Positions 17,422 to 64,000 of a stretch of DNA of 64,000 nucleotides are shown piece after piece. Origin of the DNA: Paratinospora sagittata (Eukaryota; Streptophyta; Magnoliopsida; Ranunculales; Menispermaceae); NCBI GenBank assembly GCA_035771175.1, contig CM069610.1:26750501-26814500 (forward strand), read 5' to 3'. The first letter of the stretch is position 1; the number at the start of each line of letters is the position of its first letter. A model generated the notes under the pieces. The model had not been told where the DNA came from. It searched no databases and saw only the letters and a list, made by a program, of their open reading frames with translations. The position numbers were made by a program, and so were the translations under genes.

Positions 17422-17425
17422 ACCA

Positions 17426-17455: not shown

Positions 17456-17574
17456 GGGTGCGATCATACCAGCACTAATGCACCGGATCCCATCAGAACT
17501 CCGCAGTTAAGAGTTCTTGGGCGAGAGTAGTACTAGGATGGGTGACCTCCTGGGAAGTCCTCGTGTTGCACCCC
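17456..17574 (+). rRNA. 5S: 5S rRNA gene, copy 1 (class E)
   Basis: 119 nt with C57A and G60T. The first gene after the satellite; its upstream DNA is satellite beyond about -39. Confidence 0.96.
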
Positions 17575-17886
17575 TCTTTTACGTTTTCTTTCGTTCTATT
17601 TCTTTTTTTTTTTCCCTCCCGTCGGAACTCCCTTTTAGACTCTCTCACTGATTTTTTCTTTCGCTCTTGACAGTTGCTATTTTACGTTATCCAACGCCTC
17701 GAAAATATAATAAAAACAGGAAAAACGCTACCTACTGCGTATTGGTACACGGGCAGTAACTTTTTCTACCGATGTCCGTTTTCGGTGCACTTTTTTTTTT
17801 ATTTTTGGTGGCTTTACGAGATCTACTAGCCGCAAACTGCTCCCTGTATCTCACCATTTAAATACGTTTTCCGTCGCGTATCTCAT

Positions 17887-18005
17887 GGGTGCGATCATAC
17901 CAGCACTAATGCACCGGATCCCATCAGAACTCCGCAGTTAAGCGTGCTTAGGCGAGAGTAATACTAGGATGGGTGACCTCCTCGGAAGTCCTCGTGTTGC
18001 ACCCC
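17887..18005 (+). rRNA. 5S: 5S rRNA gene, copy 2
   Basis: 119 nt with G64A, G75A and G97C, a combination not seen elsewhere in the window. Confidence 0.96.
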
Positions 18006-18209
18006 TCTTTTACTTTTTCTTTCGTTCTATTTCCTCTTTTTTTCCCTCCCGTCGGAACTCCCTTTTAGACTCTCTGACTGATTTTTTCTTTCGCTCTTGA
18101 CAGTTGCTATTTTACGTTATCCAACGCCGCGAAAATATAATAAAAACTAGAAAAATGCTACCTACTGCGTATTGGTACTACGGGCAGTAACTTTTTCTAC
18201 CGATGTCCG

Positions 18210-18242
18210 TTTTCGGTGCACTTTTTTTTTCATTTTCGGTGC
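18210..18242. repeat. Short direct repeat in the 5S spacer (TTTTCGGTGC x2)
   Basis: TTTTCGGTGC occurs at 18210-18219 and again at 18233-18242, separated by the T9 tract. Many units show the same pair; others have TTTTCGATGC in the first position, a marker that helps tell spacer lineages apart. Confidence 0.8.
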
Positions 18243-18317
18243 CTTTACGAGATCTACTAGCCGCAAACTGCTCCCTGTATCTCACCATTTAAATACGTTT
18301 TCCGTCGCGTATCTCAT

Positions 18318-18436
18318 GGGTGCGATCATACCAGCACTAATGCACCGGATCCCATCAGAACTCTGCAGTTAAGCGTTCTTTGGCGAGAGTAGTACTAGGA
18401 TGGGTGACCTCCTCGGAAGTCCTCGTGTTGCACCCC
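18318..18436 (+). rRNA. 5S: 5S rRNA gene, copy 3 (class B)
   Basis: 119 nt with C47T, G60T, G64T and G97C. Two helix II pairs (18-60 and 15-64) are lost. Confidence 0.96.
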
Positions 18437-18749
18437 TCTTTTACTTTTTCTTTCGTTCTATTTCCTCTTTTTTTTCCCTCCCGTCGGAACTCCCTTTTAG
18501 ACCCTCTGACTGATTTTTTCTTTCGCACTTGACAGTTGCTATTTTACGTTATCCAACGCCGCGAAAATATAATAAAAACAGGAAAAACGCTACCTACTGC
18601 GTATTGGTTCTACGGGCAGTAACTTTTTCTACCGATGTCCGTTTTCGGTGCACTTTTTTTTTTATTTTCGGTGCCTTTACGAGATCTACTAGCCGCAAAC
18701 TTCTCCCTGTATCTCACCATTTAAATACGTTTTCCGTCGCGTATCTCAT

Positions 18750-18868
18750 GGGTGCGATCATACCAGCACTAATGCACCGAATCGCATCAGAACTCCGCAG
18801 TTAAGATTTCTTGGGCGAGAGTAGTACTAGGATGGGTGACCTCCTGGGAAGTCCTCGTGTTGCACCCC
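18750..18868 (+). rRNA. 5S: 5S rRNA gene, copy 4 (D-like)
   Basis: 119 nt with G31A, C35G, C57A, G58T and G60T. It lacks the A100C of class D. G31A plus C35G is shared only with the edge copies 105 and 107. Confidence 0.96.
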
Positions 18869-19180
18869 TCTTTTACTTTTTCTTTCGTTCTATTTCCTTT
18901 TTTTTTCCCTCCCGTCGGAACTCCCTTTTAGACTCTCTCACTGATTTTTTCTTTCGCTCTTGACAGTTGCTATTTTACGTTATCCAACGCCGCGAAAATA
19001 TAATAAAAACAGGAAAAACGCTACCGACTGCGTATTGGTTCTACGGGCAGTAACTTTTTCTACGGATGTCCCTTTTCGATGCACTTTTTTTTTCATTTTC
19101 GGTGCCTTTACGAGATCTACTAGCCGCAAACTGCTCACTGTATCTCACCATTTAAATACGTTTTCCGTCGCGTATCTCAT

Positions 19181-19299
19181 GGGTGCGATCATACCAGCAC
19201 TAATGCACCGGATCCCATCAGAACTCCGCAGTTAAGAGTTCTTGGGCGAGAGTAGTACTAGGATGGGTGACCTCCTGTGAAGTCCTCGTGTTGCACCCC
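19181..19299 (+). rRNA. 5S: 5S rRNA gene, copy 5 (class E)
   Basis: 119 nt with C57A, G60T and a private G98T. Confidence 0.96.
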
Positions 19300-19611
19300 T
19301 CTTTTACGTTTTCTTTCGTTCTATTTCTTTTTTTTTTCCCTCCCGTCGGAACTCCCTTTTAGACTCTCTGACTGATTTTTTCTTTCGCTCTTGACAGTTG
19401 CTATTTTACGTTATCCAACGCCTCGAAAATATAATAAAAACAGGAAAAACGCTACCTACTGCGTATTGGTTCTACGGGCAGTAACTTTTTCTACCGATGT
19501 CCGTTTTCGGTGCACTTTTTTTTTTATTTTCGGTGGCTTTACGAGATCTACTAGCCGCAAACTGCTCCCTGTATCTCACCATTTAAATACGTTTTCCGTC
19601 GCGTATCTCAT

Positions 19612-19730
19612 GGGTGCGATAATACCAGCACTAATTCACCGGATCACATCAGAACTCCGCAGTTAAGCGTGCTCGGGGGAGAGTAGTACTAGGATGGGTG
19701 ACCTCCTGGGAAGCCCTCGTGTTGCACCCC
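19612..19730 (+). rRNA. 5S: 5S rRNA gene, copy 6 (class A)
   Basis: 119 nt with C10A, G25T, C35A, T63C, C67G and T103C, identical in the gene to copy 15. Confidence 0.96.
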
Positions 19731-20041
19731 TCTTTTACTTTTTCTTTCGTTCTATTTCCTTTTTTTTTCCCTCCCGTCGGTACTCCCTTTTAGACTCTAT
19801 GACTGATTTTTTCTTTCGCTCTTGACAGTTGCTATTTTACGTTATCCAACGCCGCAAAAATATAATAAAAACAAGAAAAACGCTACCTACTGCGTATTGG
19901 TTTTACAGGCAGTAACTTTTTCTACCAATGTCCGTTTTCGGTGCACTTTTTTTTTCATTTTCGGTGCCTTTCGTGATCTACTAGCCGCAAACTGCTCCCT
20001 GTATCTCACCATTTAAATACGTTTTCCGTCGCGTATCTCAT

Positions 20042-20160
20042 GGGTGCGATCATACCAGCACTAATGCACCGGATCCCATCAGAACTCTGCAGTTAAGCGT
20101 TCTTTGGCGAGAGTAGTACTAGGATGGGTGACCTCCTCGGAAGTCCTCGTGTTGCACCCC
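20042..20160 (+). rRNA. 5S: 5S rRNA gene, copy 7 (class B)
   Basis: 119 nt, same four changes as copy 3. Confidence 0.96.
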
Positions 20161-20472
20161 TCTTTTACTTTTTCTTTCGTTCTATTTCCTCTTTTTTTTC
20201 CCTCCCGTCGGAACTCCCTTTTAGACCCTCTGACTGATTTTTTCTTTCGCTCTTGACAGTTGCTATTTTACGTTATCCAACGCCACGAAAATATAATAAA
20301 AACAGGAAAAACGCTACCTACTGCGTATTGGTTCTACGGGCAGTAACTTTTTCTACCGATGTCCGTTTTCGGTGCACTTTTTTTTCATTTTCGGTGCCTT
20401 TACGAGATCTACTAGCCGCAAACTTCTCCATGTATCTCACCATTTAAATACGTTTTCCGTCGCGTATCTCTT

Positions 20473-20591
20473 GGGTGCGATCATACCAGCACTAATGAAC
20501 CGGATCCCATCAGAACTCCGCAGTTAAGCGTGCTTAGGCGAGGGTAGTACCAGGATGGGTGATCTCCTCGGAAGTCCTCGTGTTGCACCCC
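20473..20591 (+). rRNA. 5S: 5S rRNA gene, copy 8 (class C)
   Basis: 119 nt with C26A, G64A, A71G, T79C, C91T and G97C. Upstream reads CTCTT instead of CTCAT. The spacer after it is a crossover product (see 20622-20664). Confidence 0.96.
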
Positions 20592-20905
20592 TCTTTTACT
20601 TTTTCTTTCGTTCTATTTCCCTTTTTTTTTCCCTTCCGTCGGAACTCCCTTTTAGACTCTCTGAATGATTTTTTCTTTCGCTCTTGACAGTTGCTATTCT
20701 ACGTTATCCAACGCCGCGAAAATATAATAAAAACAGGAAAAACGCTACCTACTGCGTATTGGTTCTACTGGCAGAAACTTTTTCTACGGATGTCCGTTTT
20801 CGATGCACTTTTTTTTTTCATTTTCGGTGCCTTTACGAGATCTACTAGCCGCAAACTGCTCCCTGTATCTCACCATTTAAATACGTTTTCCGTCGCGTAC
20901 CTCAT

Positions 20906-21024
20906 GGGTGCGATCATACCAGCACTAATGCACCGGATCCCATCAGAACTCCGCAGTTAAGATTTCTTAGGCGAGAGTAGTACTAGGATGGGTGACCTCC
21001 TGGGCAGTCCTCGTGTTGCACCCC
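20906..21024 (+). rRNA. 5S: 5S rRNA gene, copy 9 (class D)
   Basis: 119 nt with C57A, G58T, G60T, G64A and A100C. Upstream has GTACCTCAT. Confidence 0.96.
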
Positions 21025-21336
21025 TCTTTTACTTTTTCTTTCGTTCTATTTCCTTTTTTTTTCCCTCCCGTCGGAACTCCCTTTTAGAGTCTCTAACTGA
21101 TTTTTTCTTTCGCTCTTGATAGTTGCTATTTTACGTTATCCAACGCCGCGAAAATATAATAAAAACAGGAAAAACGCTACCGACTGCGTATTGGTTCTAC
21201 GGGCAGTAACTTTTTCTACGGATGTCCGTTTTCGATGCACTTTTTTTTTCATTTTCGGTGCCTTTACGAGATCTACTAGCCGCAAACTGCTCCCTATATC
21301 TCTCCATTTAAATACGTTTTCCGTCGCGTATCTCAT

Positions 21337-21455
21337 GGGTGCGATCATACCAGCACTAATGCACTGGATCCCATCAGAACTCCGCAGTTAAGAGTTCTTG
21401 GGCGAGAGTAGTACTAGGATGGGTGACCTCCTGGGAAGTCCTCGTGTTGCACCCC
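21337..21455 (+). rRNA. 5S: 5S rRNA gene, copy 10 (class E)
   Basis: 119 nt with C29T, C57A and G60T. Upstream reads ATATCTCTCCATTTAAATA. Confidence 0.96.
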
Positions 21456-21766
21456 TCTTTTACGTTTTCTTTCGTTCTATTTCTCTTTTTTTCCCTCCCG
21501 TCGGAACTCCATTTTAGACTCTCTGACTGATTTTTTCTTTCGCTCTTGACAGTTGCTATTTTACGTTATCCAACGCCTCGAAAATATAATAAAAATAGGA
21601 AAAACGCTACCTACTGCGTATTGGTTTAACGGGCAACAACTTTTTCTACCGATGTCCGTTTTCGGTGCACTTTTTTTTTCATTTTCGGTGCCTTTACGAG
21701 ATCTACTAGCCGCAAACTGCTCCCTGTATCTCACCATTTAAATACGTTTTCCGTCGCGTATCTCAT

Positions 21767-21884
21767 GGGTGCGATCATACCAGCACTAATGCACCGGATC
21801 CCATCAGAACTCCGCAGTTAAGCGTGCTTGGGCGAGAGTAATACTAGGATTGGTGACCTCCTTGGAGTCCTCTTGTTGCACCCC
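21767..21884 (+). rRNA. 5S: 5S rRNA gene, copy 11 (class F, 118 nt)
   Basis: G75A, G85T, G97T, one base lost at about 98-101, and G108T. Box C and the 3' arm are altered; possibly non-functional. Confidence 0.94.
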
Positions 21885-22195
21885 TCTTTTACTTTTTCTT
21901 TCGTTCTATTTCCTTTTTTTTTCCCTCCCGTCGGAACTCCCTTTTAGACTCTCTAACAGATTTTTTCTTTCGCTCTTGACAGTTGCTATTTTACGTTATC
22001 CAACGCCGCGAAAATATAATAAAAACAGGAAAAACGCCACCTACTGCGTATTGGTTCTACGGGCCGTAACTTTTTCTACCGATGTCCGTTTTCGGTGCAC
22101 TTTTTTTTTATTTTCGGTGGCTTTACGAAATCTACTAGCCGCAAACTGCTCCCTGTATCTCACCATTTAAATACGTTTTCCGTCGCGTATCTCAT

Positions 22196-22314
22196 GGGTG
22201 CGATCATACCAGCACTAATGCACCGGATCCCATCAGAACTCCGCAGTTAAGCGTGCTTGGGCGAGAGTAATACTAGGATGGGTGACCTCCTTGGAAGTCC
22301 TCTTGTTTCACCCC
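22196..22314 (+). rRNA. 5S: 5S rRNA gene, copy 12 (class G)
   Basis: 119 nt with G75A, G97T, G108T and G113T. G113T breaks the C6-G113 pair of helix I. Confidence 0.95.
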
Positions 22315-22626
22315 TCTTTTACTTTTTCTTTCGTTTTATTTCCTCTTTTTTTTCCCTCCCGTCGGAACTCCCTTTTAGACTCTCTGACTGATTTTTTCTT
22401 TCGCACTTGACAGTTGTTATTTTACGTTATCCAACGCCGCGAAAATATAATAAAAACAGGAAAAACGCTACCTACTGCGTATGGTTCTACGGCCAGTAAC
22501 TTTTTCTACCGATGTCCGTTTTCGATGCACTTTTTTTTTCATTTTCGGTGCCTTTACGAGATCTACTAGCCGCAAACTGCTCCCTGTATCTCACCATTTA
22601 AATACGTTTTCCGTCGCGTATCTCAT

Positions 22627-22745
22627 GGGTGCGATCATACCAGCACTAATGCACCGGATCCCATCAGAACTCCGCAGTTAAGCGTGCTTAGGCGAGAGTA
22701 GTACTAGGATGGGTGATCTCCTCGGAAGTCCTCGTGTTGCACCCC
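22627..22745 (+). rRNA. 5S: 5S rRNA gene, copy 13 (class H)
   Basis: 119 nt with G64A, C91T and G97C; standard upstream element. Confidence 0.96.
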
Positions 22746-23058
22746 TCTTTTACTTTTTCTTTCGTTCAATTTCCCTTTTTTTTTCCCTCCCGTCGGAACT
22801 CCCTTTTAGACTCTCTAACTGATTTTTTCTTTCGCTCTTGACAGTTGCTATTTTACGTTATCCAACGCCGCGAAAATATAATAAAAATAGGAAAAACGCT
22901 ACCTACTGCGTATTGGTTCTACGGGCAGTAACTTTTTCTACCGATGTCCCTTTTCGGTGCACTTTTTTTTTCATTTTCGGTGCCTTTACGAGATCTACTA
23001 GCCGCAAACTGCTCCCTGTATCTCACCATTTAAATACGTTTTCCGTCGTTTATCTCAT

Positions 23059-23176
23059 GGGTGCGATCATACCAGCACTAATGCACCGGATCCCATCAAA
23101 ACTCCGCAGTTAAGCGTTCTTGGGCGAGAGTAGTACTAGGATGGGTGACCTCCTGGAAGTCATCGTGTTGCACCCC
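23059..23176 (+). rRNA. 5S: 5S rRNA gene, copy 14 (class I, 118 nt)
   Basis: G41A, G60T, one G lost at 97-99, C105A. Upstream CGTCGTTTATC is private to this copy. Confidence 0.94.
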
Positions 23177-23490
23177 TTTTTTACTTTTTCTTTCGTTCTA
23201 TTTCCTTTTTTTTTTCCCTCCCGTAGGAATTCCCTTTTAGACTCTCTGACTAATTTTTTTTTTTCGCTCTTGACAGTTGCTATTTTACGTTATCCAACGC
23301 CTGGAAAATATAATAAAAACAGCAAAAACGCTACCTACTGCGTATTGGTTCTACGGGCAGTAACTTTTTCTACCGATATCCGGTTTCGGTGCACTTTTTT
23401 TTTCATTTTCGGTGCCTTTACGAGATCTACTAGCCGCAAACTGCTCCCTGTATCTCACCATTTAAATACGTTTTCCGTCGCGTATCTCAT

Positions 23491-23609
23491 GGGTGCGATA
23501 ATACCAGCACTAATTCACCGGATCACATCAGAACTCCGCAGTTAAGCGTGCTCGGGGGAGAGTAGTACTAGGATGGGTGACCTCCTGGGAAGCCCTCGTG
23601 TTGCACCCC
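23491..23609 (+). rRNA. 5S: 5S rRNA gene, copy 15 (class A)
   Basis: 119 nt, same six changes as copy 6, 3,879 bp downstream of it. Confidence 0.96.
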
Positions 23610-23920
23610 TCTTTTACTTTTTCTTTCGTTCTATTTCCTTTTTTTTTCCCTCCCGTCGGTACTCCCTTTTAGACTCTCTGACTGATTTTTTCTTTCGCTC
23701 TTGACAGTTGCTATTTTACGTTATCCAACGCCGCAAAAATATAATAAAAACAAGAAAAACGCTACCTACTGCGTATTGGTTTTACAGGCAGTAACTTTTT
23801 CTACCAATGTCCGTTTTCGGTGCACTTTTTTTTTCATTTTCGGTGCCTTTCGTGATCTACTAGCCGCAAACTGCTCCCTGTATCTCACCATTTAAATACG
23901 TTTTCCGTCGCGTATCTCAT

Positions 23921-24039
23921 GGGTGCGATCATACCAGCACAAATGCACCGGATCCCATCAGAACTCTGCAGTTAAGCGTTCTTTGGCGAGAGTAGTACTA
24001 GGATGGGTGACCTCCTCGGAAGTCCTCGTGTTGCACCCC
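23921..24039 (+). rRNA. 5S: 5S rRNA gene, copy 16 (class B)
   Basis: 119 nt, class B changes plus a private T21A. Confidence 0.96.
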
Positions 24040-24351
24040 TCTTTTACTTTTTCTTTCGTTCTATTTCCTCTTTTTTTTCCCTCCCGTCGGAACTCCCTTT
24101 TAGACCCTCTGACTGATTTTTTCTTTCGCTCTTGACAGTTGCTATTTTACGTTATCCAACGCCACGAAAATATAATAAAAACAGGAAAAACGCTACCTAC
24201 TGCGTATTGGTTCTACGGGCAGTAACTTTTTCTACCGATGTCCGTTTTCGGTGCACTTTTTTTTCATTTTCGGTGCCTTTACGAGATCTACTAGCCGCAA
24301 ACTTCTCCATGTATCTCACCATTTAAATACGTTTTCCGTCGCGTATCTCTT

Positions 24352-24470
24352 GGGTGCGATCATACCAGCACTAATGAACCGGATCCCATCAGAACTCCGC
24401 AGTTAAGCGTGCTTAGGCGAGGGTAGTACCAGGATGGGTGATCTCCTCGGAAGTCCTCGTGTTGCACCCC
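24352..24470 (+). rRNA. 5S: 5S rRNA gene, copy 17 (class C)
   Basis: 119 nt, same changes as copy 8, but its spacer is an unrecombined C-type (GACTGATT, CTCTGGACAG). Confidence 0.96.
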
Positions 24471-24783
24471 TCTTTTACTTTTTCTTTCGTTCTATTTCCC
24501 TTTTTTTTTCCCTCCCGTCGGAACTCCTTTTTAGACTCTCTGACTGATTTTTTCTTTCGCTCTGGACAGTTGCTATTTTACGTTATCCAACGCCGCGAAA
24601 ATATAATAAAAACAAGAAAAATGCTACCTACTGCGTATTGGTTCTACGGGCAGTAACTTTTTCTACCGATGCCCGTTTTCGGTGCACTTTTTTTTTCATT
24701 TTCGGTGCCTTTACAAGATCTACTAGCCGCAAACTGCTCCCTGTATCTCACCATTTAAATACGTTTTCCGTCGCGTATCTCAT

Positions 24784-24902
24784 GGGTGCGATCATACCAG
24801 CACTAATGCACCGGATCCCATCAGAACTCCGCAGTTAAGCGTGCTTGGGCGAGAGTAGTACTAGGATGGGTGACCTCCTGGGCAGTCCTCGTGTTGCACC
24901 CC
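24784..24902 (+). rRNA. 5S: 5S rRNA gene, copy 18 (class J, near-canonical)
   Basis: 119 nt with A100C as the only change. With copies 69 and 82 it is the closest to canonical in the window. It has no counterpart between copies 8 and 9. Confidence 0.97.
24833..24880 (+). promoter_or_regulatory. Internal control region (example, copy 18)
   Basis: In plant 5S genes box A spans nts 50-64, the intermediate element 67-72 and box C 80-97, bound by TFIIIA. In this copy they map to 24833-24847, 24850-24855 and 24863-24880 and all three are canonical. That makes copy 18 a good reference: its only change in the gene is A100C, outside the region. Classes B, C, D, E, H, I, K, N and O all carry changes in box A. 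Confidence 0.85.
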
Positions 24903-24915
24903 TCTTTTACTTTTT
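24903..24915 (+). terminator. Pol III T-run terminator (example, copy 18)
   Basis: TCTTTTACTTTTT directly follows the terminal CCCC. The first T4 run ends 6 nt past the gene and a T5 run follows. All copies have an equivalent T-run. Class I copies read CCCCTTTTTTAC, copy 104 CCCCTATTTTAC and copy 108 CACCCTTATTTTAC. Confidence 0.85.
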
Positions 24916-25214
24916 CTTTCCTTCTATTTCCTTTTTTTTCCCTTCCGTCGGAACTCCCTTTTAGACTCTCTGAATGATTTTTTCTTTCGCTCTTGACAGT
25001 TGCTATTCTACGTTATCCAACGCCGCGAAAATATAATAAAAACAGGAAAAACGCTACCTACTGCGTATTGGTTCTACTGGCAGAAACTTTTTCTACGGAT
25101 GTCCGTTTTCGATGCACTTTTTTTTTTCATTTTCGGTGCCTTTACGAGATCTACTAGCCGCAAACTGCTCCCTGTATCTCACCATTTAAATACGTTTTCC
25201 GTCGCGTACCTCAT
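24903..25214. other. 5S non-transcribed spacer (example, 312 bp)
   Basis: The order is terminator T-runs, a C/T-rich stretch with a T8-T9 tract, CGTCGGAACTCCCTTTTAGA, a second TTTTTTCTTTCG block, an A-rich AATATAATAAAAA block, an ACTTTTTCTAC block, a T9-T10 tract, GATCTACTAGCCGCAAACTG, then the TATA-like box. Lengths of the two T tracts differ between units and account for most of the 428-433 bp variation in unit length. Open frames crossing the spacer are shadows of its low stop density. Confidence 0.85.
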
Positions 25215-25333
25215 GGGTGCGATCATACCAGCACTAATGCACCGGATCCCATCAGAACTCCGCAGTTAAGATTTCTTAGGCGAGAGTAGTACTAGGATGG
25301 GTGACCTCCTGGGCAGTCCTCGTGTTGCACCCC
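25215..25333 (+). rRNA. 5S: 5S rRNA gene, copy 19 (class D)
   Basis: 119 nt, same as copy 9. First gene of a 9-unit duplication. Confidence 0.96.
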
Positions 25334-25645
25334 TCTTTTACTTTTTCTTTCGTTCTATTTCCTTTTTTTTTCCCTCCCGTCGGAACTCCCTTTTAGAGTC
25401 TCTAACTGATTTTTTCTTTCGCTCTTGATAGTTGCTATTTTACGTTATCCAACGCCGCGAAAATATAATAAAAACAGGAAAAACGCTACCGACTGCGTAT
25501 TGGTTCTACGGGCAGTAACTTTTTCTACGGATGTCCGTTTTCGATGCACTTTTTTTTTCATTTTCGGTGCCTTTACGAGATCTACTAGCCGCAAACTGCT
25601 CCCTATATCTCTCCATTTAAATACGTTTTCCGTCGCGTATCTCAT

Positions 25646-25764
25646 GGGTGCGATCATACCAGCACTAATGCACTGGATCCCATCAGAACTCCGCAGTTAA
25701 GAGTTCTTGGGCGAGAGTAGTACTAGGATGGGTGACCTCCTGGGAAGTCCTCGTGTTGCACCCC
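25646..25764 (+). rRNA. 5S: 5S rRNA gene, copy 20 (class E)
   Basis: 119 nt with C29T, C57A, G60T, as copy 10. Confidence 0.96.
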
Positions 25765-26075
25765 TCTTTTACGTTTTCTTTCGTTCTATTTCTCTTTTTT
25801 TCCCTCCCGTCGGAACTCCATTTTAGACTCTCTGACTGATTTTTTCTTTCGCTCTTGACAGTTGCTATTTTACGTTATCCAACGCCTCGAAAATATAATA
25901 AAAATAGGAAAAACGCTACCTACTGCGTATTGGTTTAACGGGCAACAACTTTTTCTACCGATGTCCGTTTTCGGTGCACTTTTTTTTTCATTTTCGGTGC
26001 CTTTACGAGATCTACTAGCCGCAAACTGCTCCCTGTATCTCACCATTTAAATACGTTTTCCGTCGCGTATCTCAT

Positions 26076-26193
26076 GGGTGCGATCATACCAGCACTAATG
26101 CACCGGATCCCATCAGAACTCCGCAGTTAAGCGTGCTTGGGCGAGAGTAATACTAGGATTGGTGACCTCCTTGGAGTCCTCTTGTTGCACCCC
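26076..26193 (+). rRNA. 5S: 5S rRNA gene, copy 21 (class F, 118 nt)
   Basis: Same changes as copy 11. Confidence 0.94.
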
Positions 26194-26503
26194 TCTTTTA
26201 CTTTTTCTTTCGTTCTATTTCCTTTTTTTTCCCTCCCGTCGGAACTCCCTTTTAGACTCTCTAACAGATTTTTTCTTTCGCTCTTGACAGTTGCTATTTT
26301 ACGTTATCCAACGCCGCGAAAATATAATAAAAACAGGAAAAACGCCACCTACTGCGTATTGGTTCTACGGGCCGTAACTTTTTCTACCGATGTCCGTTTT
26401 CGGTGCACTTTTTTTTTATTTTCGGTGGCTTTACGAAATCTACTAGCCGCAAACTGCTCCCTGTATCTCACCATTTAAATACGTTTTCCGTCGCGTATCT
26501 CAT

Positions 26504-26622
26504 GGGTGCGATCATACCAGCACTAATGCACCGGATCCCATCAGAACTCCGCAGTTAAGCGTGCTTGGGCGAGAGTAATACTAGGATGGGTGACCTCCTT
26601 GGAAGTCCTCTTGTTTCACCCC
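26504..26622 (+). rRNA. 5S: 5S rRNA gene, copy 22 (class G)
   Basis: 119 nt, same as copy 12. Confidence 0.95.
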
Positions 26623-54515: not shown

Positions 54516-54633
54516 GGGTGCGATCATACCAGCACTAATGCACCGGATCCCATCAAAACTCCGCAGTTAAGCGTTCTTGGGCGACAGTAGTACTAGGATG
54601 GGTGACCTCCTGGAAGTCATCGTGTTGCACCCC
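54516..54633 (+). rRNA. 5S: 5S rRNA gene, copy 87 (class I, 118 nt)
   Basis: Class I plus G70C; the preceding spacer has TTTTAAGTTATCC instead of TTTTACGTTATCC. Confidence 0.94.
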
Positions 54634-54945
54634 TTTTTTACTTTTTCTTTCGTTCTATTTCCTTTTTTTTTCCCTCCCGTCGGAATTCCCTTTTAGACTC
54701 TCTGACTGATTTTTTTTTTCGCTCTTGACAGTTTCTATTTTACGTTATCCAACGCCTGGAAAATATAATAAAAACAGCAAAAACGCTACCTACTGCGTAT
54801 TGGTTCTACGGGCAGTAACTTTTTCTACCGATATCCGGTTTCGGTGCACTTTTTTTTTCATTTTCGGTGCCTTTACGAGATCTACTAGGCGCAAACTTCT
54901 CCTTGTATCTCACCATTTAAATACGTTTTCTGTCGCATATCTAAT

Positions 54946-55064
54946 GGGTGCGATCATACCAGCACTAATGCACCGGATCCCATCAGAACTCCATAGTGAA
55001 GCGTGCTTGGGCGAGAGTAGTACTAGGATGGGTGACCTCCTGGGAAGTCCTCGTGTTGCACCCC
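54946..55064 (+). rRNA. 5S: 5S rRNA gene, copy 88 (class K)
   Basis: 119 nt with G48A, C49T, T53G. Confidence 0.96.
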
Positions 55065-55376
55065 TCTTTTACTTTTTCTTTCGTTCAATTTCCCTTTTTT
55101 TTTCCCTCCCGTCGGAACTCCCTTTTAGACTCTCTAACTGATTTTTTCTTTCGCTCTTGACAGTTGCTATTTTACGTTATCCAACGCCGCGAAAATATAA
55201 TAAAAACAGGAAAAACGCTACCTACTGCGTATTTGTTCTACGGGCAGTAACTTTTTCTACCGATGTCCGTTTTCGGTGCATTTTTTTTTCATTTTCGGTG
55301 CCTTTACGAGATCTACAAGCCGTAAACTGCTCCCTGTATCTTACCATTTAAATACGTTTTCCGTCGCGTATCTCAT

Positions 55377-55495
55377 GGGTGCGATCATATCAGCACTAAT
55401 GCACCGGATCCCATCAGAACTTCGCAGTTAAGAGTTCTTGGGCGAGAGTAGTACTAGGATGGGTGACCTCCTGGGAAGTCCTCGTGTGGCACCCC
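55377..55495 (+). rRNA. 5S: 5S rRNA gene, copy 89 (class N)
   Basis: 119 nt with C14T, C46T, C57A, G60T, T112G. C14T turns the 14-65 pair into U-G. Confidence 0.96.
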
Positions 55496-55807
55496 TCTTT
55501 TACTTTTTCTTTCGTTCTATTTCCTTTTTTTTTCCCTCCCGTCGGAACTCCCCTTTAGACTCTCTGACTGATTTTTTCTTTCGCTCTTGACAGTTGCTAT
55601 TTTACGTTATCCAACGCCGCGAAAATATAATAAAAACAAGAAAAATGCTACCTACTGCGTATTGGTTCTACGGGCAGTAACTTTTTCTACCGATGTCCGT
55701 TTTCGGTGCAATTTGTTTTTCATTTTCGGTGCCTTTACGAGATCTACTAGCCGCAAACTGCTCCCTGTATCTTACCATCTAAATACGTTTTCCGTCGCGT
55801 ATCTCAT

Positions 55808-55926
55808 GGGTGCGATCATACCAGCACTAATGCACCGGATCCCATCAGAACTCCGCAGTTAAGAGTTCTTGGGCGAGAGTAGTACTAGGATAGGTGACCT
55901 CCTGGAAAGTCCTCGTGTTGCACCCC
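55808..55926 (+). rRNA. 5S: 5S rRNA gene, copy 90 (class E)
   Basis: 119 nt with C57A, G60T, G85A, G99A. The TATA-like box is altered to CATCTAAATA. Confidence 0.96.
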
Positions 55927-56237
55927 TCTTTTACTTTTTCTTTCGTTCTATTTCCTTTTTTTTTCCCTCCCGTCGGAACTCCCTTTTAGACTCTATGACT
56001 GATTTTTTCTTTCGCTCTTGACAGTTGCTATTTTACGTTATCCAACGCCTGGAAAATATAATAAAAACAGGAAAAACGCTACCTACTGCGTATTGGTTCT
56101 ACGGGCAGTAACTTTTCTACCGATGTCCGTTTTCGGTGCACTTTTTTTTTCATTTTCGGTGCCTTTACGAGATCTACTAGCCGCAAACTGCTCCCTGTAT
56201 CCCACCATTTAAACACGATTTCCGTCGCGTATCTCAT

Positions 56238-56356
56238 GGGTGCGATCATACCAGCACTAATGCACCGGATCCCATCAGAACTCCGCAGTTACGTGTTCTT
56301 GGGCGAGAGTAGTACTAGGATGGGTGACCTCCTGGGAAGTCCTCGTGTTGCACCCC
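56238..56356 (+). rRNA. 5S: 5S rRNA gene, copy 91 (class O)
   Basis: 119 nt with A55C, C57T, G60T in box A. The upstream box is TTTAAACACGATTTCC, so both promoter parts are changed. Confidence 0.95.
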
Positions 56357-56667
56357 TCTTTTACTTTTTCTTTCGTTCTATTTCCTTTTTTTTTCCCTCC
56401 CATCGGAACTCCCTTTTAGACTCTCTGACTGATTTTTTCTTTCACTCTTGACAGTTTCTATTTTACGTTATCCAACGCCTCGAAAATATAATAAAAATAG
56501 GAAAAACGCTACCTACTGCGTATTGGTTCTACGGGCAGTAACTTTTCTACCGATGTACGTTTTCGGTGCTCTTTTTTTTTCATTTTCGGTGCCCTTACGA
56601 GATCTACTAGCCGCAAACTGCTCCCTGTATCTCGCCATTTAAATACGTTTTCCGTCGCGTATCTCAT

Positions 56668-56786
56668 GGGTGCGATCATACCAGCACTAATGCACCGGAT
56701 CCAATCAGAACTCCATAGTGAAGCGTGCTTGGGCGAGAGTAGTACTAGGATGGGTGACCTCCTGGGAAGTCCTCGTGTTGCACCCC
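56668..56786 (+). rRNA. 5S: 5S rRNA gene, copy 92 (class K)
   Basis: 119 nt with C36A, G48A, C49T, T53G, behind a standard CCGTCGCGTATCTCAT flank rather than the K-type flank. Confidence 0.96.
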
Positions 56787-57097
56787 TCTTTTACTTTTTC
56801 TTTCGTTCTATTTCTTTTTTTTTTCCCTCCCGTCGGAACTCCCTTTTAGACTCTCTAACTGATTTTTTCTTACGCTCTTGACAGTTGCTATTTTACGTTA
56901 TCCAACGCCGCGAAAATATAATAAAAACAGGAAAAACGCTACCTACTGCGTATTGGTTCTACGGGCAGTAACTTTTTCTACCGATGTCCGTTTTCGGTGC
57001 ATTTTTTTTTCATTTTCGGTGCCTTTACGAGATCTACTAGCCGCAAACTGCTCCCTGTATCTTACCATTTAAATACGTTTTCCGTCGCGTATCTCAT

Positions 57098-57216
57098 GGG
57101 TGCGATCATACCAGCACTAATGCACCGGATCCCATCAGAACTCCGCAGTTAAGAGTTCTTGGGCGAGAGTAGTACTAGGATGGGTGACCTCCTGGGAAGT
57201 CCTCGTGTGGCACCCC
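57098..57216 (+). rRNA. 5S: 5S rRNA gene, copy 93 (class N)
   Basis: 119 nt with C57A, G60T, T112G; upstream ATCTTACC. Confidence 0.96.
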
Positions 57217-57527
57217 TCTTTTACTTTTTCTTCCGTTCTATTTCCTTTTTTTTCCCTCCCGTCGGAACTCCCTTTTAGACTCTCTGACTGATTTTTTCTT
57301 TCGCTCTTGACAGTTGCTATTTTACGTTATCCAACGCCGCGAAAATATAATAATAACAAGAAAAATGCTACCTACTGCGTATTGGTTCTACGGGCAGTAA
57401 CTTTTTCTACCGATGTTCGTTTTCGGTGCATTTTTTTTTTCATTTTCGGTGCCTTTACGAGATTGACTAGCCGCAAACTGCTCCCTGTATCTTACCATCT
57501 AAATACGTTTTCCGTCGCGTATCTCAT

Positions 57528-57646
57528 GGGTGCGATCATACCAGCACTAATGCACCGGATCCCATCAGAACTCCGCAGTTAAGAGTTCTTGGGCGAGAGT
57601 AGTACTAGGATGGGTGACCTCCTGGGAAGTCCTCGTGTTGCACCCC
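57528..57646 (+). rRNA. 5S: 5S rRNA gene, copy 94 (class E, duplication junction)
   Basis: 119 nt with C57A and G60T. The promoter CATCTAAATA matches copies 90, 100 and 104, but G85A and G99A are absent and the spacer after it matches copy 84. Confidence 0.96.
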
Positions 57647-57958
57647 TCTTTTACGTTTTCTTTGGTTCTATTTCTTTTTTTTTCCCTCCCGTCGGAACTC
57701 CCTTTTAGACTCTCTGACTGATTTTTTCTTTCGCTCTTGACAGTTACTATTTTACGTTATCCAACGCCTCGAAAATATAATAAAAATAGGAAAAACGCTA
57801 CCTACTGCGTATTGGTTTAACGGGCAACAACTTTTTCTACCGATGTCCGTTTTCGGTGCACTTTTTTTTTTCATTTTCGGTGCCTTTACGAGATCTACTA
57901 GCCGCAAACTGCTCCCTGTATCTCACCATTTAAATACGTTTTCCGTCGCGTATCTCAT

Positions 57959-58076
57959 GGGTGCGATCATACCAGCACTAATGCGCCGGATCCCATCAGA
58001 ACTCCGCAGTTAAGCGTGCTTGGGCGAGAGTAATACTAGGATTGGTGACCTCCTTGGAGTCCTCTTGTTGCACCCC
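57959..58076 (+). rRNA. 5S: 5S rRNA gene, copy 95 (class F, 118 nt)
   Basis: Class F plus A27G; 4,305 bp after copy 85. Confidence 0.94.
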
Positions 58077-58388
58077 TCTTTTACTTTTTCTTTCGTTCTA
58101 TTTCCTTTTTTTTTCCCTCCCGTCGGAACTCCCTTTTAGACTCTCTAACAGATTTTTTCTTTCGCTCTTGACAGTTGCTATTTTACGTTATCCAACGCCG
58201 CGAAAATATAATAAAAACAGGAAAAACGCTACCTACTGCGTATTGGTTCTACGGCCAGTAACTTTTTCTACCGATGTCCGTTTTCGATGCACTTTTTTTT
58301 TCATTTTCGGTGCCTTTACGAGATCTACTAGCCGCGAACTGCTCCCTGTATCTCACCATTTAAATACGTTTTCCGTCGTGTATCTCAT

Positions 58389-58507
58389 GGGTGCGATCAT
58401 ACCAGCACTAATGCACCGGATCCCATCAGAACTCCGCAGTTAAGCGTGCTTAGGCGAGAGTAGTACTAGGATGGGTGATCTCCTCGGAAGTCCTCGTGTT
58501 GCACCCC
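58389..58507 (+). rRNA. 5S: 5S rRNA gene, copy 96 (class H)
   Basis: 119 nt, counterpart of copy 86. Confidence 0.96.
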
Positions 58508-58820
58508 TCTTTTACTTTTTCTTTCGTTCAATTTCCCTTTTTTTTTCCCTCCCGTCGGAACTCCCTTTTAGACTCTCTAACTGATTTTTTCTTTCGCTCT
58601 TGACAGTTGCTATTTTACGTTATCCAACGCCGCGAAAATATAATAAAAATAGGAAAAACGCTACCTACTGCGTATTGGTTCTACGGGCAGTAACTTTTTC
58701 TACCGATGCCCCTTTTCGGTGCACTTTTTTTTTCATTTTCGGTGCCTTTACGAGATCTACTAGCCGCAAACTACTCCCTGTATCTCACCATTTAAATACG
58801 TTTTCCGTCGTGTATCTCAT

Positions 58821-58938
58821 GGGTGCGATCATACCAGCACTAATGCACCGGATCCCATCAAAACTCCGCAGTTAAGCGTTCTTGGGCGACAGTAGTACTA
58901 GGATGGGTGACCTCCTGGAAGTCATCGTGTTGCACCCC
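58821..58938 (+). rRNA. 5S: 5S rRNA gene, copy 97 (class I, 118 nt)
   Basis: Class I plus G70C; counterpart of copy 87 without its spacer change. Confidence 0.94.
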
Positions 58939-59251
58939 TTTTTTACTTTTTCTTTCGTTCTATTTCCTTTTTTTTTTCCCTCCCGTCGGAATTCCCTTTT
59001 AGACTCTCTGACTGATTTTTTTTTTCGCTCTTGACAGTTTCTATTTTACGTTATCCAACGCCTGGAAAATATAATAAAAACAGCAAAAACGCTACCTACT
59101 GCGTATTGGTTCTACGGGCAGTAACTTTTTCTACCGATATCCGGTTTCGGTGCATTTTTTTTTTCATTTTCGGTGCCTTTACGAGATCTACTAGGCGCAA
59201 ACTTCTCCTTGTATCTCACCATTTAAATACGTTTTCTGTCGCATATCTAAT

Positions 59252-59370
59252 GGGTGCGATCATACCAGCACTAATGCACCGGATCCCATCAGAACTCCAT
59301 AGTGAAGCGTGCTTGGGCGAGAGTAGTACTAGGATGGGTGACCTCCTGGGAAGTCCTCGTGTTGCACCCC
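59252..59370 (+). rRNA. 5S: 5S rRNA gene, copy 98 (class K)
   Basis: 119 nt, counterpart of copy 88. Confidence 0.96.
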
Positions 59371-59681
59371 TCTTTTACTTTTTCTTTCGTTCAATTTCCC
59401 TTTTTTTTTCCCTCCCGTCGGAACTCCCTTTTAGACTCTCTAACTGATTTTTTCTTTCGCTCTTGACAGTTGCTATTTTACGTTATCCAACGCCGCGAAA
59501 ATATAATAAAAACAGGAAAAACGCTACCTACTGCGTATTTGTTCTACGGGCAGTAACTTTTTCTACCGATGTCCGTTTTCGGTGCATTTTTTTTCATTTT
59601 CGGTGCCTTTACGAGATCTACAAGCCGTAAACTGCTCCCTGTATCTTACCATTTAAATACGTTTTCCGTCGCGTATCTCAT

Positions 59682-59800
59682 GGGTGCGATCATATCAGCA
59701 CTAATGCACCGGATCCCATCAGAACTTCGCAGTTAAGAGTTCTTGGGCGAGAGTAGTACTAGGATGGGTGACCTCCTGGGAAGTCCTCGTGTGGCACCCC
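59682..59800 (+). rRNA. 5S: 5S rRNA gene, copy 99 (class N)
   Basis: 119 nt with C14T, C46T, C57A, G60T, T112G; same as copy 89. Confidence 0.96.
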
Positions 59801-60112
59801 TCTTTTACTTTTTCTTTCGTTCTATTTCCTTTTTTTTTCCCTCCCGTCGGAACTCCCCTTTAGACTCTCTGACTGATTTTTTCTTTCGCTCTTGACAGTT
59901 GCTATTTTACGTTATCCAACGCCGCGAAAATATAATAAAAACAAGAAAAATGCTACCTACTGCGTATTGGTTCTACGGGCAGTAACTTTTTCTACCGATG
60001 TCCGTTTTCGGTGCAATTTTTTTTTCATTTTCGGTGCCTTTACGAGATCTACTAGCCGCAAACTGCTCCCTGTATCTTACCATCTAAATACGTTTTCCGT
60101 CGCGTATCTCAT

Positions 60113-60231
60113 GGGTGCGATCATACCAGCACTAATGCACCGGATCCCATCAGAACTCCGCAGTTAAGAGTTCTTGGGCGAGAGTAGTACTAGGATAGGT
60201 GACCTCCTGGAAAGTCCTCGTGTTGCACCCC
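60113..60231 (+). rRNA. 5S: 5S rRNA gene, copy 100 (class E)
   Basis: 119 nt with C57A, G60T, G85A, G99A; same as copy 90, with the CATCTAAATA promoter. Confidence 0.96.
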
Positions 60232-60542
60232 TCTTTTACTTTTTCTTTCGTTCTATTTCCTTTTTTTTTCCCTCCCGTCGGAACTCCCTTTTAGACTCTA
60301 TGACTGATTTTTTCTTTCGCTCTTGACAGTTGCTATTTTACGTTATCCAACGCCTGGAAAATATAATAAAAACAGGAAAAACGCTACCTACTGCGTATTG
60401 GTTCTACGGGCAGTAACTTTTCTACCGATGTCCGTTTTCGGTGCACTTTTTTTTTCATTTTCGGTGCCTTTACGAGATCTACTAGCCGCAAACTGCTCCC
60501 TGTATCCCACCATTTAAACACGATTTCCGTCGCGTATCTCAT

Positions 60543-60661
60543 GGGTGCGATCATACCAGCACTAATGCACCGGATCCCATCAGAACTCCGCAGTTACGTG
60601 TTCTTGGGCGAGAGTAGTACTAGGATGGGTGACCTCCTGGGAAGTCCTCGTGTTGCACCCC
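60543..60661 (+). rRNA. 5S: 5S rRNA gene, copy 101 (class O)
   Basis: 119 nt with A55C, C57T, G60T; same as copy 91 including the altered TATA-like box. Confidence 0.95.
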
Positions 60662-60972
60662 TCTTTTACTTTTTCTTTCGTTCTATTTCCTTTTTTTTTC
60701 CCTCCCATCGGAACTCCCTTTTAGACTCTCTGACTGATTTTTTCTTTCACTCTTGACAGTTTCTATTTTACGTTATCCAACGCCTCGAAAATATAATAAA
60801 AATAGGAAAAACGCTACCTACTGCGTATTGGTTCTACGGGCAGTAACTTTTCTACCGATGTACGTTTTCAGTGCTCTTTTTTTTTCATTTTCGGTGCCCT
60901 TACGAGATCTACTAGCCGCAAACTGCTCCCTGTATCTCGCCATTTAAATACGTTTTCCGTCGCGTATCTCAT

Positions 60973-61091
60973 GGGTGCGATCATACCAGCACTAATGCAC
61001 CGGATCCCATCAGAACTCCATAGTGAAGCGTGCTTGGGCGAGAGTAGTACTAGGATGGGTGACCTCCTGGGAAGTCCTCGTGTTGCACCCC
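60973..61091 (+). rRNA. 5S: 5S rRNA gene, copy 102 (class K)
   Basis: 119 nt with G48A, C49T, T53G; like copy 92 but without C36A. Confidence 0.96.
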
Positions 61092-61402
61092 TCTTTTACT
61101 TTTTCTTTCGTTCTATTTCCTTTTTTTTTCCCTCCCGTCGGAACTCCCTTTTAGACTCTCTAACTGATTTTTTCTTACGCTCTTGACAGTTGCTATTTTA
61201 CGTTATCCAACGCCGCGAAAATATAATAAAAACAGGAAAAACGCTACCTACTGCGTATTGGTTCTACGGGCAGTAACTTTTTCTACCGATGTCCGTTTTC
61301 GGTGCATTTTTTTTTCATTTTCGGTGCCTTTACGAGATCTACTAGCCGCAAACTGCTCCCTGTATCTTACCATTTAAATACGTTTTCCGTCGCGTATCTC
61401 AT

Positions 61403-61521
61403 GGGTGCGATCATACCAGCACTAATGCACCGGATCCCTTCAGAACTCCGCAGTTAAGAGTTCTTGGGCGAGAGTAGTACTAGGATGGGTGACCTCCTGG
61501 GAAGTCCTCGTGTGGCACCCC
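61403..61521 (+). rRNA. 5S: 5S rRNA gene, copy 103 (class N)
   Basis: 119 nt with A37T, C57A, G60T, T112G. Confidence 0.96.
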
Positions 61522-61832
61522 TCTTTTACTTTTTCTTCCGTTCTATTTCCTTTTTTTTCCCTCCCGTCGGAACTCCCTTTTAGACTCTCTGACTGATTTT
61601 TTCTTTCGCTCTTGACAGTTGCTATTTTACGTTATCCAACGCCGCGAAAATATAATAAAAACAAGAAAAATGCTACCTACTGCGTATTGGTTCTACGGGC
61701 AGTAACTTTTTCTACCGATGTTCGTTTTCGGTGCATTTTTTTTTTCATTTTCGGTGCCTTTACGAGATTTACTAGCCGCAAACTGCTCCCTGTATCTTAC
61801 CATCTAAATACGTTTTCCGTCGCGTATCTCAT

Positions 61833-61951
61833 GGGTGCGATCATACCAGCACTAATGCACCGGATCCCATCAGAACTCCGCAGTTAAGAGTTCTTGGGCG
61901 AGAGTAGTACTAGGATAGGTGACCTCCTGGAAAGTCCTCGTGTTGCACCCC
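61833..61951 (+). rRNA. 5S: 5S rRNA gene, copy 104 (class E)
   Basis: 119 nt with C57A, G60T, G85A, G99A. Terminator reads CCCCTATTTTAC. Last unit that fits the repeating class order. Confidence 0.95.
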
Positions 61952-62263
61952 TATTTTACGTTTTCTTTCGTTCTATTTCTTTTTTTTTTCCCTCCCGTCG
62001 GAACTCCCTTTTAGACTCTCTGACTGATTTTTTCTTTCACTCTTGACAGTTGCTATTTTACGTTATCCAACGCCTCGAAAATATAATAAAAATAGGAAAA
62101 ACGCTACCTACTGCGTATTGGTTCTACGGGCAGTAACTTTTTCTACCGATGTACGTTTTCAGTGCTCTTTTTTTTTCATTTTCGGTGCCCTTACGAGAAC
62201 TACTAGCCGCAAACTGCTCCCTGTATCTCGCCATTTAAATACGTTTTCCGTCGCGTATCTCAT

Positions 62264-62382
62264 GGGTGGGATCATACCAGCACTAATTCACTGAATCGCA
62301 TCAGAACTCCGCAGTCAAGCGTGCTTGGGCAAGAGTAGTACTATGATGGGTGACCTCCTCGGAGGTCCTCGTGTTGCACCCC
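62264..62382 (+). rRNA. 5S: 5S rRNA gene, copy 105 (divergent, likely pseudogene)
   Basis: 119 nt with about ten changes: C6G, G25T, C29T, G31A, C35G, T53C, G68A, G81T, G97C and A101G. C6G breaks helix I, and box A, the intermediate element and box C are all hit. The most altered gene in the window. Confidence 0.92.
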
Positions 62383-62694
62383 TCTTTTACTTTTTCTTTC
62401 GTTATATTTCCCTTTTTTTTCCCTCCCGTCGGAACTCCCTTTTAGACTCTCTGACTGATTTTTTCTTTCGCTCTTGACAGTTCCTATTTTACGTTATCCA
62501 ACGCCGCGAAAATATAATAAAAATAGGAAAAATGCTACCTACTGCGTATTGGTTCCTCGGGCAGTAATTTTTTCTACCGATGTCCGTTTTCGGTGCACTT
62601 TTTTTTTCATTTTCGGTGCCTTTACGAGATCTACTAGCCGCAAACTGCTCCTTGTATCTCACCATTTAAATACGTTTTCCGTCGCATATCTCAT

Positions 62695-62813
62695 GGGTGC
62701 GATCATACCAGCACTAATGCATCGGATCCCATCAGAACTCCGTAGTTAAGCGCGTTTGGGCGAGAGTAGTACTAGGATTGGTGACCTCCTGGGAAGTCCT
62801 CGTGTTGCACCCC
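62695..62813 (+). rRNA. 5S: 5S rRNA gene, copy 106 (divergent)
   Basis: 119 nt with C28T, C49T, T59C, C61T and G85T, none of them part of the usual class sets. Upstream CGTCGCATATCTCAT. Confidence 0.94.
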
Positions 62814-63127
62814 TCTTTTACTTTTTCTTTCGTTCTACTTCCTTTTTTTTTTCTCTCTCGTCGGAACTCCCTTTTAGACTCTCTGACTGATTTTTTCTTT
62901 CGCTCTTGACATTTGCTATTTTACATTATCCAACGCCGCGAAAATATAATAAAAATAGGAAAAACTCTACCTACTGCGTATTGGTTCTACGGGCAGTAAC
63001 TTTTTCTACCGATGTTCGTTTTCGGTGCACTTTTTTTTTTCATTTTCGGTGCCTTTACGAGATCTACTAGCCGCAAACTGCTCCCTGTATCTCACCATTT
63101 AAATACGTTTTCCGTCGCGTATTTCAT

Positions 63128-63246
63128 GGGTGCGATAATACCAGCACTAATTCACCGAATCGCATCAGAACTCCGCAGTTAAGCGTGCTTGGGCGAGAGT
63201 AGTACTAGGATGGGTGACCTCCTGGGAAGTCCTCGTGTTGCACCCC
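63128..63246 (+). rRNA. 5S: 5S rRNA gene, copy 107 (A-like)
   Basis: 119 nt with C10A, G25T, G31A and C35G. The internal control region is canonical throughout. Confidence 0.96.
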
Positions 63247-63557
63247 TCTTTTACTTTTTCTTTCGTTCTATTTCCTTTTTTTTTCCCTCCCGTCGGAACT
63301 CCCTTTCAGACTCTCTAACTGATTTTTTCTTTCGCTCTTGACAGTTGCTATTTTACGTTATCAAACGCCGCGAAAATATAATAAAAACCGGAAAAACGCT
63401 ACCTACTGCGTATTGGTTCTACGGGCAGTAACTTTTTCTACCGATGTCCGTTTTCGGTGCACTTTTTTTTTATTTTCGGTGGCTTTACGAGATCTACTAG
63501 CCGCAAACTGCTCCCTGTATCTCACCATTTAAATACATTTTCCGTCGCGTATCTCAT

Positions 63558-63676
63558 GGGTGCGATCCTACCAGCACTAATGCACCGGATCCCATCAGAA
63601 CTCCGCAGTTAAGCGTGCTTGGGCGAGAGTAATACGTGGATGGGTGACCTCCTCGGAACTCCTCTTGTTGCACCCT
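63558..63676 (+). rRNA. 5S: 5S rRNA gene, copy 108 (divergent)
   Basis: 119 nt with A11C, G75A, T79G, A80T, G97C, G102C, G108T and C119T. The terminator is shifted to CTTATTTTAC. Likely weak or non-functional. Confidence 0.92.
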
Positions 63677-63988: not shown

Positions 63989-64000
63989 GGGTGCGATCAT
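63989..64000 (+). rRNA. 5S: 5S rRNA gene, copy 109 (cut by window edge)
   Basis: The first 12 nt (GGGTGCGATCAT) are present after a normal TTTAAATA flank; the rest is outside the window. Confidence 0.85.

What the first reader, a model, noticed from the sequence alone, without database searches (positions are those of the whole stretch)
17456..63676. None of 108 complete 5S genes has the canonical plant sequence
Each copy has at least one change from the conserved 119-nt plant 5S rRNA. The closest are copies 18, 69 and 82 (A100C only). Since 5S rRNA is among the most conserved plant genes, the main expressed copies may lie elsewhere, or this species may use a variant such as A100C. The canonical sequence here is from established knowledge, not a search.
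Basis: partly seen in the sequence, partly recalled or inferred. Interest (0 to 1): 0.75.

Follow-up and report, generated by a model that had tools for sequence, protein, structure and literature searches.

The report
Unhomogenised edge block of 5S genes
The 108 5S genes in this window all differ from the standard plant sequence because they lie in an inverted, poorly homogenised end block of a larger array; exact standard copies sit about 143,000 bases further along the same chromosome and elsewhere in the genome, so this is a clear example of a known pattern and not a plant with an unusual 5S RNA.

Summary
In detail: 0 of 108 copies match the 119-nt canonical plant 5S gene, and copies 18, 69 and 82 carry A100C alone. 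It is not evidence of a non-canonical 5S RNA. The majority consensus of the 108 copies equals the canonical gene at all 119 positions, and the window's own genome (1.29 Gb) holds 551 exact canonical copies. The nearest listed one on the same contig is 143 kb right of the window, in the opposite orientation. The window holds 108 of the 126 copies of a plus-strand block (0 of 126 canonical). Then come 9 more diverged inverted copies, about 131 kb without 5S matches, and a minus-strand array whose first block has 51 of 104 copies canonical. Gene (3.2%) and spacer (2.5%) both differ from consensus about four times more than in that array (0.84%, 0.54%). The array's spacer carries a three-base haplotype in 206 of 212 units; 0 of 125 units of the window's block carry it. 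A100C is in 0 of 297 other units examined; the C57A/G60T word has 29 genome matches, all in this block. Best reading: an edge block cut off from homogenisation, drifting and re-amplified in multi-unit segments. Expression was not testable.

The parts
17456..63676 (+). 108 complete 5S rRNA genes in ~431-bp tandem units, 0 of 108 canonical; first 108 of 126 plus-strand copies (block ends at contig C22:26821918, outside the window)
17417..64000 (+). tandem array of ~431-bp 5S units (gene plus ~312-bp spacer), continuing beyond the window end
   Evidence: Tandem Repeats Finder row 17417-64000, period 431; 5S-unit matches run to window coordinate 71749 in the extended sequence
24784..24902 (+). 5S copy 18, A100C only (one of the three closest to canonical)
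46755..46873 (+). 5S copy 69, A100C only
52363..52481 (+). 5S copy 82, A100C only
53224..61521 (+). duplicated 10-unit block: copies 84-93 repeated as copies 94-103 (mean 1.50 differences per unit)
36845..44717 (+). duplicated 9-unit block: copies 46-54 repeated as copies 56-64 (mean 1.11 differences per unit)
25215..32224 (+). duplicated 8-unit block: copies 19-26 repeated as copies 28-35 (mean 0.12 differences per unit)
1..17428 (+). 1181-bp satellite array that borders the 5S block on the left
   Evidence: 15 BLAST segments, mean identity 95.5%; periodic rows
17417..17428 (.). satellite/5S junction: alignments of satellite and 5S unit overlap by 12 bp

Best explanation
The window covers the outer left end of a bipartite 5S rDNA locus. 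This plus-strand block (126 copies, bordered by a satellite on the left and by a short inverted, still more diverged remnant on the right) descends from canonical 5S units but no longer exchanges sequence effectively with the minus-strand array beyond a ~131-kb interval. Mutations therefore accumulated in gene and spacer alike, and unequal exchange inside the block copied runs of 6-10 units, multiplying the resulting variant classes. SHOWN: no canonical copy in 126; canonical majority consensus; equal mutability of gene and spacer; multi-unit duplications; absence of the array's diagnostic spacer haplotype; 551 exact canonical copies elsewhere in the genome. INFERRED: that inversion and/or the inserted interval is what cut off exchange, that most copies of the block are weakly transcribed or silent, and that the ribosome uses canonical 5S from the other arrays.
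For: 0 of 126 copies canonical here against 51 of 104 and 22 of 76 in two minus-strand blocks of the same contig and 9 of 35 further right; 551 exact canonical copies genome-wide. Consensus of the 108 = canonical at 119 of 119 positions. Divergence from consensus: gene 3.17%, spacer 2.49% here (125 units) against 0.84% and 0.54% (178 minus units), so both rise about fourfold. Spacer haplotype at 302/373/374: CGC in 206 of 212 C22 minus units, 0 of 125 here; GAG in 107 of 125 here and in 74 of 77 units from C10/C1020/C312/C407, so the array changed and this block did not follow. No constraint visible in the gene: 52 of 119 gene and 130 of 312 spacer sites vary; base-adjusted ratio 0.90 (0.68-1.17), and a gene rate of 0.6 x spacer would give 52 or more variable sites with P=0.005; alleles do not avoid Rfam-conserved positions (23 of 61, 19.3 expected) or base pairs (23 of 61 break a pair, 25.1 expected). 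Parallel runs at lags 10, 9, 6. C57A/G60T word: 29 genome matches, all C22:26768004-26821871 plus strand.
Against: Lack of constraint does not mark this block out: canonical loci also show no depletion of variants in the gene (base-adjusted ratio 1.47), so it cannot by itself prove the block non-functional. 'Edge means diverged' fails at another boundary: the left end of the minus array, next to the 131-kb interval, is the most uniform part (20 of 20 canonical). Within the window there is no gradient of divergence with distance from the left edge (Spearman -0.04, p=0.68). The 8 of 108 copies with an intact control region 50-97 could be transcribed. nt 1-24 were less variable than expected in the window (5 of 24 sites, 10.2 expected), although not in the whole 126-copy block (10 of 24). 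No expression, methylation or read data.
Confidence: 0.82

Rival explanations
1. The block is a functional, specialised 5S class (tissue- or stage-specific, or the species' true 5S), so its variants are real ribosomal RNA variants.
For: All 108 copies score above the Rfam 5S cut-off (80-110 bits against 38) and the spacer keeps the T-rich stretch after the gene and the TTTAAATA stretch upstream. A fully expressed 5S type 6% diverged is described in Cardamine amara (PMC13087485, passages read). 8 of 108 copies have an intact 50-97 control region.
Against: 37 different gene sequences, none dominant (largest class 10 of 108); alleles are random with respect to conserved positions and base pairs; the classes tested are confined to this block; canonical copies are abundant elsewhere. 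The Cardamine case is a single homogenised majority type, which this is not.
Confidence: 0.08
2. The variants are errors of assembly or consensus in a repeat.
For: Tandem repeats are hard to assemble, and reported 5S copy numbers differ between assemblies of one Arabidopsis accession (PMC9757041, passages read).
Against: Linked multi-site haplotypes recur in order over runs of up to 10 units; changes are mostly substitutions spread over gene and spacer; the same assembly gives long runs of identical canonical copies nearby (20 of 20).
Confidence: 0.04
3. The block came from another genome (hybridisation or introgression) and diverged there before arrival.
For: It lacks the spacer changes of the adjacent minus array and shares the GAG state with C10 and C1020 units.
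Against: Its consensus is closest to the adjacent C22 array (3 substitutions, against 6 to C10 and 13-14 to C1020/C312/C407), and GAG is also the state of all the other loci tested, so it is simply the state the C22 array left.
Confidence: 0.06

Closest known systems
Maize Mo17 5S array on chromosome 2L (PMC10335936, passages read)
   Same: One end mostly one genotype, the other end more diverse with more transposon insertions, taken by its authors as older.
   Different: All maize copies have one orientation; here the diverged block is inverted relative to the canonical array and holds no canonical copy in 126.
Edge-located, less homogenised and pseudogenised rDNA copies in human and wheat (review PMC10462631, passages read)
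   Same: Same principle: edge copies of a cluster escape homogenisation.
   Different: Here the canonical array also begins abruptly, with its most uniform copies at its left boundary.
Wheat 5B 5S pools 52 and 89 (PMC5688495, passages read)
   Same: One cluster with mutated genes and transposon insertions beside a more homogeneous one, with identical consensus RNA structure.
   Different: Wheat pools were BAC pools with merged repeats; here unit order is resolved.
C. elegans N2 5S cluster (PMC8961926, passages read)
   Same: Ordered unit variants next to canonical units in one cluster.
   Different: About 976-bp units; that text reported few SNPs in the coding sequence from earlier work.
Pike (Esox) 5S arrays (PMC5437419, passages read)
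   Same: Higher-order organisation of 5S units.
   Different: In pike the gene is more homogeneous than the spacer and pseudogenes are not significant; here gene and spacer are equally diverged.

Membership tests
Edge-located, poorly homogenised 5S rDNA block | tandem 5S units with full-length gene and spacer | tested here: met
   108 full-length Rfam matches, period 431
Edge-located, poorly homogenised 5S rDNA block | divergence clearly above the main array of the same genome | tested here: met
   gene 3.17% v 0.84%, spacer 2.49% v 0.54%
Edge-located, poorly homogenised 5S rDNA block | lies at an end of the cluster | tested here: met
   satellite at window 1-17428 on the left; on the right 9 inverted copies, then 130,921 bp without 5S-unit matches
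Edge-located, poorly homogenised 5S rDNA block | no exchange with the main array | tested here: met
   diagnostic spacer haplotype CGC: 206 of 212 array units, 0 of 125 block units
Edge-located, poorly homogenised 5S rDNA block | divergence graded with distance from the edge | tested here: not met
   Spearman -0.04, p=0.68 within the 108 copies
5S pseudogene cluster | gene evolves like spacer, without constraint | tested here: met
   base-adjusted ratio 0.90, CI 0.68-1.17; but canonical arrays also fail to show depletion
5S pseudogene cluster | C>T and G>A excess from methylated cytosine | tested here: inconclusive
   transitions 33 of 79 gene alleles and 101 of 190 spacer alleles; no clear CG or CHG excess
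5S pseudogene cluster | not transcribed | not testable with these tools
   no RNA data
Functional variant 5S class | one homogenised majority variant | tested here: not met
   37 gene sequences, largest class 10 of 108
Functional variant 5S class | secondary structure preserved | tested here: not met
   23 of 61 alleles break a pair, random expectation 25.1

The most novel reading that the evidence does not exclude
In arrays that still work, the 5S transcription unit is a mutation hot spot, while selection keeps only the majority sequence of each array canonical. Within canonical loci the gene carries more distinct alleles per site than its spacer (base-adjusted 1.47, CI 1.17-1.86), against 0.96 in the window's block, and coding-strand G>T is raised (20 of 105 gene site-chances v 10 of 129 spacer) but C>A is not (10 of 99 v 24 of 246). 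Between loci the gene consensus never differs (0 gene differences v 11, 16 and 19 spacer differences). That would fit transcription-associated mutation in active arrays and its loss in the window's block. Against it: with circular shifts the gene window ranks only 63 of 431 and the -39..119 window 13 of 431; one of three canonical loci alone has a CI including 1 (1.17, 0.72-1.82); G>T is also raised in the window's block (15 of 35 v 9 of 43), where activity is doubted.
Probability: 0.15. Interest if true: 0.55.

Novelty: new member of a known kind. Interest (0 to 1): 0.33.

Why it matters
It settles a tempting misreading: a window full of non-canonical 5S genes does not mean non-canonical ribosomes. 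It also gives a resolved natural comparison within one locus, a block cut off from homogenisation beside an array that was swept by a new spacer variant, and private signatures (C57A/G60T, A100C) that make the block's expression directly testable from existing RNA reads. The comparison shows that, in this genome, selection is not visible on single copies and is visible only in the sequence each array holds as its majority.

Tried and rejected
A-box inactivation as a selected state: the window has 10 of 15 A-box sites variable (6.1 expected, P=0.025) and A box plus IE 14 of 21 (P=0.009), but box limits are recalled, several regions were tried, and in the allele-level test on the 125-unit block A box plus IE is P=0.085 and A box alone P=0.045, while canonical loci give P=0.33 and 0.20. 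Left as weak.

Methylation-type decay: no clear C>T/G>A context excess. Edge gradient: none. Total 5S copy number: the pattern search was asked and never answered, so the canonical fraction genome-wide is unknown; one search scored only 47 of 25,993 candidates. The right end of the C22 array was not reached (units run on to 27142000). McDonald-Kreitman-type tables for the window's block against C22 minus (0 v 3 differences, p=0.56) and C10 (0 v 8, p=0.11) are not significant; against C1020/C312/C407 p=0.012. One search stopped with an error after four loci and was rerun without the inverted set.

Rows left out: unit comparisons used 125 of 126 plus, 8 of 9 inverted, 103 of 104, 75 of 76 and 34 of 35 minus copies, 43 of 46 C10 and 22 of 23 C1020 copies, and 6 of 7 each from L001 and L003, because a unit needs a neighbour; L002 and L004-L008 were counted but not put in the unit alignment.
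Full report
OBSERVATION. Rfam finds 108 plus-strand 5S genes at 17456-63676 in 431-bp tandem units. None of the 108 equals the canonical 119-nt plant gene; copies 18, 69 and 82 differ by A100C only. The canonical sequence was typed from recall. It is supported here by being the majority consensus of the 108 copies at all 119 positions, by 551 exact matches in the genome with 0 for the reversed control, and by being the majority gene of 9 of 10 unit sets. The copies are 37 distinct gene sequences and 83 distinct units, multiplied in parallel runs of up to 10 units. At this divergence, having no canonical copy is not itself surprising (Poisson P(0)=0.64 over 37 sequences, 0.15 over 108 if independent).

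NEIGHBOURHOOD. The window is C22:26750501-26814500 of a 1.29-Gb, 4049-contig genome. I read the contig on to 27044500 and a further stretch 27127001-27142000. Order: satellite (window 1-17428); plus block of 126 copies, 0 canonical, mean 4.0 changes; an inversion junction inside a 5S gene after nt 21; 9 minus copies, mean 8.0 changes, 0 canonical; 130,921 bp without 5S-unit matches, with many repeated pairs of sequence inside it; minus block 1, 104 copies, 51 canonical; a 10,115-bp insertion; minus block 2, at least 76 copies, 22 canonical. At 27127001-27142000, 9 of 35 copies are canonical. The first canonical copy on this contig, C22:26957529, lies 143 kb from the window's right end. Samples of contig C10 (7 of 46 copies canonical) and unplaced contig C1020 (3 of 23) also hold canonical copies.

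WHY THE WINDOW'S COPIES DIFFER. Divergence from consensus is 3.17% in the gene and 2.49% in the spacer of this block (125 units), against 0.84% and 0.54% in the two minus blocks (178 units). Gene and spacer rise together, which points to less homogenisation rather than to a change in the gene's function. At spacer positions 302, 373 and 374 the minus array reads CGC in 206 of 212 units, while units of C10, C1020, C312 and C407 read GAG in 74 of 77 and this block reads GAG in 107 of 125 and CGC in 0 of 125. The simplest account is that a new spacer type swept the minus array and never entered this block. Its consensus is nevertheless closest to the minus array (3 substitutions; 6 to C10, 13-14 to C1020/C312/C407).

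CONSTRAINT. In the window 52 of 119 gene and 130 of 312 spacer sites vary. Adjusted for base composition the allele ratio is 0.90 (0.68-1.17), and a gene rate of 0.6 x the spacer rate would give 52 or more variable gene sites with P=0.005. Alleles neither avoid positions conserved in Rfam nor base pairs. Canonical loci show no depletion either; there the gene is, if anything, more variable (1.47, CI 1.17-1.86). Lack of constraint is therefore general and not a mark of this block. Constraint appears between loci: gene consensus differences are 0 in three comparisons of canonical loci, against 11, 16 and 19 in the spacer (Fisher p=0.008, 0.0016, 0.0004). These tests treat sites as independent, and C1020, C312 and C407 are unplaced contigs that may be one locus (consensus differences 0-1).

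'Main copies elsewhere' is right for DNA; expression is untested. 'The species uses A100C or another class' is not supported: A100C and C57A are in 0 of 297 aligned units outside the block, and the C57A/G60T word has 29 genome matches, all in the block. G60T alone does occur in 5 of 75 units of minus block 2, G64A in 5 of 103 units of minus block 1 and G97C in 3 of 212 minus units, so single changes recur.

KNOWN OR NEW. Edge copies that escape homogenisation are described for human and wheat rDNA (PMC10462631, passages). A 5S array with one uniform and one diverse, transposon-rich end is described in maize (PMC10335936, passages), and a degenerate beside a uniform 5S cluster in wheat (PMC5688495, passages). 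Large numbers of 5S pseudogenes are mentioned for Thinopyrum, wheat and Solanaceae in PMC11070557 (passages). I file this as a new member of that kind. I did not find a paper on this species or its spacer (six spacer words, no paper).

Noticed in passing
window 1-17428: A 1181-bp satellite (15 BLAST segments, mean 95.5% identity to the first monomer) borders the 5S block; within the contiguous 294 kb examined it was found only there.
   Followed up: partly
C22:27001556-27011670 (window coordinates 251056-261170, outside the window): A 10,115-bp insertion with ~2.9-kb terminal repeats (98.3% identical, 9 mismatches, 41 gap positions) interrupts a 5S gene between the two canonical blocks; the flanks look like a 5-bp target duplication (read by eye). 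A young LTR retrotransposon, by its structure.
   Followed up: partly
C22:26822247 (window coordinate ~71747, outside the window): The plus block ends inside a 5S gene after nt 21, fused to inverted 5S spacer; the 9 inverted copies beyond are the most diverged of the locus (mean 8.0 changes).
   Followed up: partly
C22 minus blocks, C10, C1020/C312/C407 samples: In canonical loci the gene carries more alleles per site than the spacer (base-adjusted 1.47), with coding-strand G>T raised in the gene; circular-shift support is modest.
   Followed up: partly
window 27799-27917 and 31675-31793 (copies 25, 34): These two identical genes combine C10A/G25T/C35A of one class with C57A/G58T/G60T/G64A/A100C of another, which looks like exchange inside the gene.
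   Followed up: no
window 34689, 35548, 45462, 48910 (copies 41, 43, 66, 74): Four copies share a 3-nt deletion (nt 70-72) in the recalled intermediate element of the internal promoter.
   Followed up: no
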